Below, piece by piece: positions 35,101 to 36,668 of a stretch of 64,000 bases of DNA (the stretch's first letter is position 1; the number at the start of each line of letters is the position of its first letter). Below the pieces are notes generated by a model. That model had not been told where the DNA came from. It did not search any database and worked only from the letters and a program-made list of their open reading frames with translations. The stretch spans positions 1 to 64,000 of the forward strand of contig JAAYAL010000024.1 in assembly GCA_012719395.1 (NCBI GenBank). The letters run 5' to 3'. The DNA is from Gaiellales bacterium. GTDB lineage: Bacteria > Actinomycetota > Thermoleophilia > RBG-16-64-13. Position numbers and translations under genes: made by a program.

Positions 35101-36668
35101 AGTCCATCGAGGTTCCCCTGCGCAAGGATGACCGTATCAACGAATCCCTGTTGGGTCGCCTGTTCGGTGCGGATGTGGCAGACCCGGAGACCGGGGAGAT
35201 CGTATACCGTCGGAACGATCACTGCACCAAGAAGGTGCTGGAGCACTTGGACCGGCTGTTTTCCGACGCCCGCCACCGCGACGTCAGAATCAAGATCCGC
35301 TCCGTACTGGTGTGCGAGAGCGAATTCGGCATTTGCCAGCACTGCTACGGACGGTCGCTGGCCACCAACGAGCTGGTTGCCATCGGTGAGGCGGTGGGGC
35401 ACGTGGCCGCCCAGTCCATCGGTGAGCCGGGTACGCAGCTCACCATGCGCACCTTCCACCTGGGAGGCGTGGCCGGGCTCGATATCACACAGGGTCTGCC
35501 GCGGGTGGTGGAGCTGTTCGAGGCCCGTCGGCCCAAAGGACAGGCCAAGCTGATCGAAACGGCCGGTCGCATCAGGCTGGAGGAAGGTGATCGGGCGGTC
35601 AAAGCCCACGTCGTCTCCGCGGACGGAGAGATCCTGCACAGCTACTCCGTGAGTCGCCGTGTGCGCCTCATGGTGCGCGACGGCCAGGAAGTGGAACCGG
35701 GCGATCAGCTGTACGAAGGCTCGCTCAACCCGCACGAGCTGCTTGAAGCGCTCTGGGGCGCCTACCAGCAGCGGTACGCCGGCGACCCGGACGCGCCGCC
35801 CTTCAAGGGCATGCTACGCGTGGGTCAGTACATCGTGGACGAGGTGCAGCGCGTCTACAAGAGCCAGGGCGTTGATATCAACGACAAGCATATCGAGCTC
35901 ATCGTGCGGCAGATGACCAAGAAGGTCATCATCGATACCCCCGGTGATACGTATTTCCTGCCGGGGCAGATGGTGGATCGCGGGGCCTTCCTGCGCGAGA
36001 ACATGGCGGTGCTCGAGCGCGAGGGTGAGCCGGCGTCCGCCCAGGAAGTCATCTTGGGCATCACCAAGGCTTCTTTGGCCACGGAGAGCTTCCTTTCCGC
36101 GGCCTCCTTCCAGGAGACCACCAAGGTATTGACCGACGCTGCTCTGGAGGGCAAGACCGACTATCTGCGCGGTCTGAAGGAGAACGTCATCATCGGGAAG
36201 CTCATCCCCGCGGCCACCGGCCTCAAGCAGTATCGCAATGTGGAGGTGTACTCGCTGTACCAGCGGGAGCGGGGGGTTTTCGAAAGCGCCGAGTCGGGTG
36301 AGGGTGGGCAGCTCACCCCGGAAGAGAAGTGGGAGCAACTGACGGGCAAGGTGGGTACGCGGCGCGAGGAAGACGATGTGGTCATCGACGACCTCGATCT
36401 GCCCACCTACATCCATTCGGTCCTGTCCCGGGCCGGCATGGAGACGGTGGGCGACATCACCTCTCGCTCCGGCCCGGAATTGCTGGCCATCCCCGGTTTT
36501 GGCCAGAAGAGCCTGGAGGAGGTCAAAGTCCGGCTGCACGATCGCAACTTCGCGCTGCGCGACGAGCTGGGCGAGGGCTTGGCGGATGCCGAGGAGTACA
36601 TCGGGGAAGCAGTGAGCGAGGGCGACGCCGAGCTGGACGAGGCAGAATCGGCAGAGTCTGAGGTCTGA
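32130..36668 (+). CDS. rpoC: DNA-directed RNA polymerase subunit beta-prime with C-terminal alpha-CTD-like domain
   Basis: 1512 residues from a TTG. The N-terminal zinc ribbon ([19 protein letters not shown]) and the catalytic NADFDGD (Asp625, Asp627, Asp629) are intact, and the core follows the actinobacterial pattern. After the usual end of beta-prime ([18 protein letters not shown]), about 130 extra residues follow. They are an acidic linker, a domain (about 1416-1480) that aligns with the RNA polymerase alpha C-terminal domain, and a Glu/Ala-rich tail. The normal alpha subunit is encoded separately at 55006-56157. The extension is in frame and continuous, so it is not an assembly join artefact visible at this level. 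Mycobacterial beta-prime ends soon after the core. Confidence 0.96.
36375..36569 (+). other. Alpha-CTD-like helix-hairpin-helix domain inside rpoC
   Basis: Residues 1416-1480 of beta-prime. Core positions shared with alpha CTD are IDDLDL / IEELEL, then ETVGD in both, [17 protein letters not shown] versus AELLNTPNFGKKSIDEV, and a hydrophobic end. The helix-1 DNA contacts of alpha (Arg265, Asn268, Cys269 in E. coli; present in this organism's own alpha as VRSYNC) are replaced here (TYIHSV). The loop residues Gly296, Lys298, Ser299 and Glu302 are kept. The fold seems preserved, but minor-groove binding may be lost or changed. Confidence 0.85.

What the first reader, a model, noticed from the sequence alone, without database searches (positions are those of the whole stretch)
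36375..36569. Beta-prime subunit of RNA polymerase carries an alpha-CTD-like domain
Seen: about 130 residues follow the normal end of beta-prime. Residues 1416-1480 align without gaps to the alpha C-terminal domain of the same genome (ETVGD, PxLL, GxKSxxEV shared). The minor-groove contacts of helix 1 (Arg265, Asn268, Cys269 equivalents) are Tyr, Ser and Val, whereas the Gly-x-Lys-Ser loop is kept. Known: alpha CTD binds UP elements, activators and elongation factors. Inference: the domain could be a tethered docking site for a regulator or for upstream DNA, giving a polymerase with three CTD-like modules. I do not know whether it is described in related taxa; longer beta-prime proteins of Coriobacteriia may share it.
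Basis: partly seen in the sequence, partly recalled or inferred. Interest (0 to 1): 0.85.

Follow-up and report, generated by a model that had tools for sequence, protein, structure and literature searches.

The report
RNA polymerase β′ with α-type tail domain
In this uncultured actinobacterium the largest subunit of RNA polymerase carries, on a flexible tail, an extra copy of the small regulatory domain that normally sits only on the alpha subunit; the copy is under selection, has lost the residues alpha uses to read DNA, and similar fusions occur in two other actinobacterial lineages, yet what it does has not been tested.

Summary
RpoC (window 32130-36668, 1512 aa) runs about 140 residues past the normal β′ end. 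Residues 1412-1478 match the RNA polymerase alpha C-terminal domain (PF03118, 47-53 bits, cut-off 23.8) and are confidently predicted to fold like it (pLDDT 93-95; about 1 Å to solved αCTDs). Linker and acidic tail are predicted disordered.

It is no assembly accident: fifteen relatives (uncultured Actinomycetota, some labelled Thermoleophilia) carry it, and the domain is under purifying selection. In the phylum it recurs in three families that are probably Coriobacteriia and in part of one more family, and is absent from 39 other families sampled. The RpoC core tree rejects one clade of carriers; whether the three domains share an origin is unresolved.

In this family the αCTD minor-groove residues R265/N268/C269 are invariantly Tyr/Ser/Val-Ile, while G296, K298, S299 and E302 are kept. 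I favour a tethered protein-docking arm over a third UP-element reader; neither was tested. NCBI's RpoC model NF011498 already spans the domain. I found no publication describing the fusion among the open-access papers searched.

The parts
32130..36668 (+). rpoC, β′ subunit, 1512 aa, TTG start, between rpoB and rpsL
   Evidence: ORF and translation; TIGR02386 1677 bits over residues 10-1369 and NF011498 1699.5 bits, both above cut-off
36237..36362 (+). linker after the β′ core (residues 1370-1411), predicted disordered apart from a short helix
   Evidence: TIGR02386 ends at residue 1369; AF2 pLDDT about 45-69 in this stretch
36312..36347 (+). short linker motif [12 protein letters not shown] (residues 1395-1406), with E, L and G invariant in 16 sequences
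   Evidence: alignment A2; AF2 helix 39-46 of the modelled tail, low confidence
36363..36563 (+). αCTD-family domain (residues 1412-1478)
   Evidence: PF03118, BLASTP to own alpha, AF2 pLDDT 93-95, Foldseek to αCTDs
36408..36422 (+). helix-1 positions of the αCTD DNA contacts: Tyr1427 (R265), Ser1430 (N268), Val1431 (C269)
   Evidence: alignment and residue counts; Y and S in 15 of 15 family members
36495..36521 (+). second hairpin GFGQKSLEE (G1458, K1460, S1461, E1464 = G296, K298, S299, E302)
36564..36665 (+). acidic C-terminal tail (residues 1479-1512), faster-evolving, predicted disordered
   Evidence: AF2 pLDDT about 45-54; higher dN/dS than the domain in all four pairs
55003..56157 (+). 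rpoA; canonical CTD at residues 319-374, plus an extra, weakly CTD-like segment of about 65 residues at about 235-295 (55705-55887)
   Evidence: the extra segment is below the Pfam cut-off

Best explanation
The β′ subunit of this lineage ends in a true αCTD-family domain carried on a flexible linker of about 45 residues and followed by an acidic tail (shown by sequence, profile and predicted structure). It is kept by purifying selection (shown). Inference: it works as an extra tethered contact arm of RNA polymerase, sited at the β′ C-terminus next to omega, and binds a protein partner (sigma region 4, an activator, or an elongation factor) rather than reading UP elements as alpha does, because the three minor-groove residues of helix 1 are invariantly replaced while the fold and the acidic positions 258/259/261, which in E. 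coli alpha face sigma, are kept. Such an arm is found at the β′ end in three separate lineages of Actinomycetota, and the versions differ in which DNA-contact residues survive.
For: Identity: PF03118 over cut-off; BLASTP to own alpha; PDB sequence hits are nearly all alpha subunits; AF2 domain pLDDT 93-95 with disordered flanks; Foldseek best local matches are αCTDs, isolated CTDs mostly at 0.7-1.3 Å over 55-65 residues. Reality: same fusion in L173-L187, three of which are the genomes G044, G187 and G251. Selection: dN/dS for the domain about 0.20, 0.09, 0.03 and 0.12 in four pairs, lower than the acidic tail each time. Loss of DNA reading: R265 to Y 15/15, N268 to S 15/15, C269 to V/I; G296, K298, S299, E302 15/15; 258/259/261 all acidic. 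R265 is crucial for UP-element binding (PMC2988021), and the Thermus αCTD, in which some DNA-binding residues are not conserved, does not share the UP-element role (PMC5511352). The neighbourhood can serve as a contact site: omega linked to a DNA-binding protein can activate transcription (Dove and Hochschild 1998, as cited in PMC9638019) and GafA binds omega natively (PMC9638019).
Against: No partner is known and nothing was tested in vitro or in vivo. The second-hairpin residues K298 and S299 are kept, so some DNA backbone contact is possible. The position next to omega is general knowledge of β′ structure, not modelled here. Acidic 258/259/261 are also common in ordinary alphas, so their retention may be structural.
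Confidence: 0.5

Rival explanations
1. A third DNA-binding CTD: the domain touches upstream (or other) DNA through its helix-hairpin-helix loop, stabilising promoter or elongation complexes without sequence reading.
For: Hairpin G-x-K-S and E302 invariant in the family; N294 became Gly in all three lineages, giving the generic HhH form G-h-G. The Coriobacteriia-type version keeps R265, N268 and K298, and the third lineage keeps R265 and N268.
Against: In this family R265, N268 and C269 are lost without exception; mean net charge of the domain is -2.4 against -1.1 for alphas, and -6.9 in the Coriobacteriia type; an acidic tail follows.
Confidence: 0.25
2. The domain pairs with the enzyme's own parts (alpha CTD, sigma region 4 or NusA) and acts as an internal brake or clamp rather than recruiting an outside regulator.
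For: αCTDs are known to contact sigma region 4 and each other (E. coli literature, own knowledge); 258/259/261 acidic in all 15.
Confidence: 0.15
3. A passive relic: an in-frame duplication of an alpha CTD that is tolerated but has no job.
For: The tail lies outside the catalytic core; helix-1 contacts were lost; within family f21 some genera lack it.
Against: Purifying selection on the domain relative to its own tail; present in every RpoC of the own family examined; new invariant residues (Y and S at 265 and 268).
Confidence: 0.09
4. Artefact: frameshift, misassembly or chance resemblance.
For: The window is from a draft assembly of 92 contigs.
Against: Independent assemblies carry the same fusion; E=2e-12; confident fold.
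Confidence: 0.01

Closest known systems
RNA polymerase alpha C-terminal domain (Pfam PF03118; E. coli 1lb2/3n97, B. subtilis 1z3e, Synechococcus 9dvt)
   Same: Same fold at about 1 Å, same two-hairpin order, 42% identity to the genome's own alpha CTD, conserved G296/K298/S299/E302, tethered by a flexible linker
   Different: Sits on β′, one copy per enzyme; R265, N268, C269 replaced; N294 is Gly
Coriobacteriia-type RpoC (NCBIfam NF011498 / PRK14906; the taxon is my recollection)
   Same: αCTD-family domain at the same end of β′; the window's RpoC passes the model's cut-off (1699.5 vs 1437)
   Different: That domain keeps R265 and N268, has C269K and S299A, and is followed by about 85 more residues; the RpoC core tree puts the two lineages apart
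RpoC of part of family f21 (G123, G177, G188)
   Same: αCTD-family domain (PF03118 41.9 bits in G123) at the end of β′
   Different: Keeps R265 and N268 but has lost K298 and S299; close relatives in the same family lack the domain
Lineage-specific insertions of β and β′ (e.g. Actinobacteria β′i1, PMC5511352)
   Same: Extra domain added to a large subunit in certain lineages
   Different: Terminal, not an insertion, and of the family of another subunit of the same enzyme
NusA acidic-repeat (AR) domains
   Same: HhH fold related to αCTD (own knowledge)
   Different: Only one weak sequence match (20 bits to a NusA chain versus about 50 to alphas)

Membership tests
αCTD family (PF03118) | Profile score above the curated cut-off | tested here: met
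   47.1-52.8 bits vs 23.8
αCTD family (PF03118) | αCTD fold | tested here: met
   AF2 model and Foldseek: 0.9 Å over 63 columns, TMt 0.89 to 8y5t_A2
αCTD family (PF03118) | Minor-groove contact residues R265, N268, C269 | tested here: not met
   Y, S, V/I in 15 of 15
αCTD family (PF03118) | Hairpin residues G296, K298, S299, E302 | tested here: met
   15 of 15
αCTD proper (part of RpoA) | C-terminal domain of the alpha subunit | tested here: not met
   It is on RpoC; rpoA has its own CTD at 55957-56124
αCTD proper (part of RpoA) | Binds UP elements and activators | not testable with these tools
   needs biochemistry
Coriobacteriia-type RpoC (NF011498) | Score above the model cut-off | tested here: met
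   1699.5 vs 1437 bits
Coriobacteriia-type RpoC (NF011498) | Full-length match including the part after the CTD | tested here: not met
   Match stops at model position 1371 of 1459; a Coriobacteriia-like RpoC matches 1-1459
Coriobacteriia-type RpoC (NF011498) | Same clade in the RpoC core tree | tested here: not met
   AU test of own family plus Coriobacteriia type as one clade: p=9.5e-6
NusA AR domain | Closer in sequence to NusA AR than to alpha CTD | tested here: not met
Recurrent gain of the fusion in three lineages | Carriers do not form one clade of RpoC cores | tested here: met
   AU p=2e-40; 3 changes forced by starred branches of a quick tree
Recurrent gain of the fusion in three lineages | Domains have separate origins in the domain tree | tested here: inconclusive
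   61 columns; all RpoC domains on one side of a branch, 89/81 unstarred; grouping own-family domains with class alphas not rejected, p=0.23

The most novel reading that the evidence does not exclude
Actinomycetota have attached an alpha-CTD module to the β′ C-terminus at least three times, making a fixed extra regulatory arm near omega. Each lineage kept a different part of alpha's contact surface: protein-facing in this family, DNA-facing in the Coriobacteriia type. In this family the alpha subunit also gained a second, degenerate CTD-like segment, so the enzyme would carry five CTD-like modules.
Probability: 0.3. Interest if true: 0.78.

Novelty: new variant of a known kind. Interest (0 to 1): 0.6.

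Why it matters
Bacterial RNA polymerase is usually described as having exactly two movable CTD arms, both on alpha. A third one fixed to β′, in organisms that probably include cultured gut Coriobacteriia, means that regulatory rules from E. coli cannot simply be carried over. It also gives a natural experiment, three lineages with different surviving contact residues, for asking what an αCTD does when it can no longer read DNA. If Coriobacteriia share it, the idea can be tested in culturable anaerobes.

Tried and rejected
Longer frames (over 1000 aa) with PF03118 hits in other Actinomycetota (L074-L076, L078, L080) were candidates for RpoC; they lack the RpoC end motif and look like BREX PglW. 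Long frames in the Bacillota and Chloroflexota samples were checked and are not RpoC. Of the named hits after L187, those checked are not RpoC and nearly all look like rpoA. The extra alpha segment as a second CTD: PF03118 is its top hit but below cut-off (14.5 bits), hhalign gives 34% probability, and a single-sequence AF2 model was useless (mean pLDDT 46), so it is left as a lead. Literature searches found no description of the fusion; three likely papers on RNA polymerase domain evolution are not held.

Full report
What was checked. The rpoC gene of the window is 32130-36668 on the + strand, 1512 residues. The β′ equivalog model TIGR02386 ends at residue 1369, so about 143 residues follow the normal end. 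In them PF03118, the alpha C-terminal domain, matches residues 1412-1470 with 47.1 bits and E=2e-12 in the whole protein; the only other match in the genome is rpoA itself. BLASTP with the genome's own alpha gives 42% identity over 52 residues without a gap, E=1e-12.

Structure. AlphaFold2 on the tail with 15 natural relatives gives a compact helical domain at residues 1415-1476 (pLDDT 93-95) between disordered stretches. Against the PDB the best local matches are αCTDs, among them E. coli, V. cholerae, Streptomyces, B. subtilis, Synechococcus and Caulobacter, mostly at about 0.7-1.3 Å for isolated CTD chains; TM-scores normalised by such targets are mostly 0.7-0.93. The domain is therefore an αCTD-family fold, not just a similar-looking stretch.

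Is it real and kept? The three other genomes of the same family in the phylum sample carry it in frames of 1443-1464 aa. Fifteen named loci, L173-L187, carry it; three of them (L179, L181, L184) are the same contigs as in G187, G044 and G251, and L183 covers only the end of the gene. Their titles are uncultured Actinomycetota, two of them labelled Thermoleophilia. In four pairs of relatives dN/dS of the domain is about 0.20, 0.09, 0.03 and 0.12, in each case below that of the acidic tail.

How widespread? A PF03118 survey of 397 genomes of the phylum, a follow-up of genomes with more than one match and a survey of RpoC tails give a clear split. Scored with my own alpha-CTD profile: own family 47-54 bits, families f19/f26/f40 39-43 bits, three genomes of family f21 23-28 bits, and nothing above 6 bits in the 39 other families sampled or in three other f21 genomes. 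All 35 genomes of f19/f26/f40 re-searched have the second match in a frame of RpoC size, 1460-1501 aa. These families are probably Coriobacteriia: NCBIfam NF011498 fits one of their RpoC proteins from position 1 to 1459 with 3016 bits. That this model was built from Coriobacteriia, and that it was once titled a β′/alpha domain fusion, is my recollection and was not verified. Samples of 101 Chloroflexota and 101 Bacillota genomes gave no RpoC case. Other phyla were not sampled.

Origins. In a tree of RpoC cores (472 columns, quick method) the carriers need three changes of state, and a single clade is rejected (p=2e-40; own family plus Coriobacteriia type p=9.5e-6). Three gains, transfer of the domain, or one old gain with many losses are all possible; three changes is the least. 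The domain tree itself has only 61 columns: all RpoC domains lie on one side of a branch with support 89/81, which is not firm and could be long-branch attraction; grouping the own-family domains with the alphas of the class is not rejected (p=0.23).

What it may do. In the own family the three helix-1 residues with which alpha CTD enters the minor groove (R265, N268, C269 in E. coli numbering) are Tyr, Ser and Val/Ile in all 15 sequences, while G296, K298, S299 and E302 are invariant and positions 258/259/261 are all acidic. R265 is crucial for UP-element binding (PMC2988021), and the Thermus αCTD, with some DNA-binding residues not conserved, does not share the UP-element role (PMC5511352). 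So reading of UP elements by this domain is unlikely; weak backbone contact by the hairpin is not excluded. The Coriobacteriia type keeps R265, N268, K298 and E302 but has C269K, S299A and a mean net charge of -6.9; the f21 type keeps R265 and N268 but not K298 and S299. The three versions may thus do different things. The β′ C-terminus lies next to omega (general knowledge); omega linked to a DNA-binding protein can activate transcription, and one native regulator, GafA, binds omega (PMC9638019), so a module there can in principle touch regulators. My best guess is a tethered protein-docking arm, at 0.5.

Novelty. The domain is known; its place on β′ is not described in the open-access papers that I could search, but subscription papers were out of reach and NCBI's RpoC model already spans the domain. 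I call it a new variant of a known kind.

Limits. No partner, no expression data, no biochemistry. Family codes are unnamed, so 'Coriobacteriia' rests on one profile model. The RpoC core tree is a quick tree with no bootstrap.

Noticed in passing
window 55705-55887 (rpoA residues about 235-295): Alpha has about 65 extra residues between its N-terminal domain and its canonical CTD, also in relatives L253 and L254; weakly CTD-like (PF03118 14.5 bits, below cut-off), so alpha may carry a degenerate second CTD.
   Followed up: partly
L262 (own genome NusA), L260, L261, L263, L264: NusA of the own family and of one other family of the class ends in a Cys/His module (own genome: RCHALTAGGKRCPNAALPGGLYCGIPGHQ).
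   Followed up: partly
L118 (G132, family f46), end of RpoC: RpoC of a family next to the Coriobacteriia type ends in two Cys/His modules of the same look (DUF5763 / zf-TRM13_CCCH) and no CTD: another module added to the β′ tail.
   Followed up: partly
window 36312-36347; RpoC tails of families f8, f14, f46, f19/f26/f40: A short motif ([12 protein letters not shown] here) precedes the CTD and has look-alikes such as LSDEEA or ITREEAERMLGG in RpoC tails with and without the CTD; it could be an older binding motif.
   Followed up: no
L074-L076, L078, L080: Frames above 1000 aa with PF03118 hits in other Actinomycetota that look like BREX PglW.
   Followed up: partly
G079, G014, G090, G133, G144 (family f2, same class): RpoC open frames of 1523-1965 aa although their tails are only about 45-54 residues, so extra sequence must lie elsewhere in the frame.
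   Followed up: no
window 36675-36703: A promoter-like pair TTGCCG-17-TATACT lies between rpoC and rpsL.
   Followed up: no
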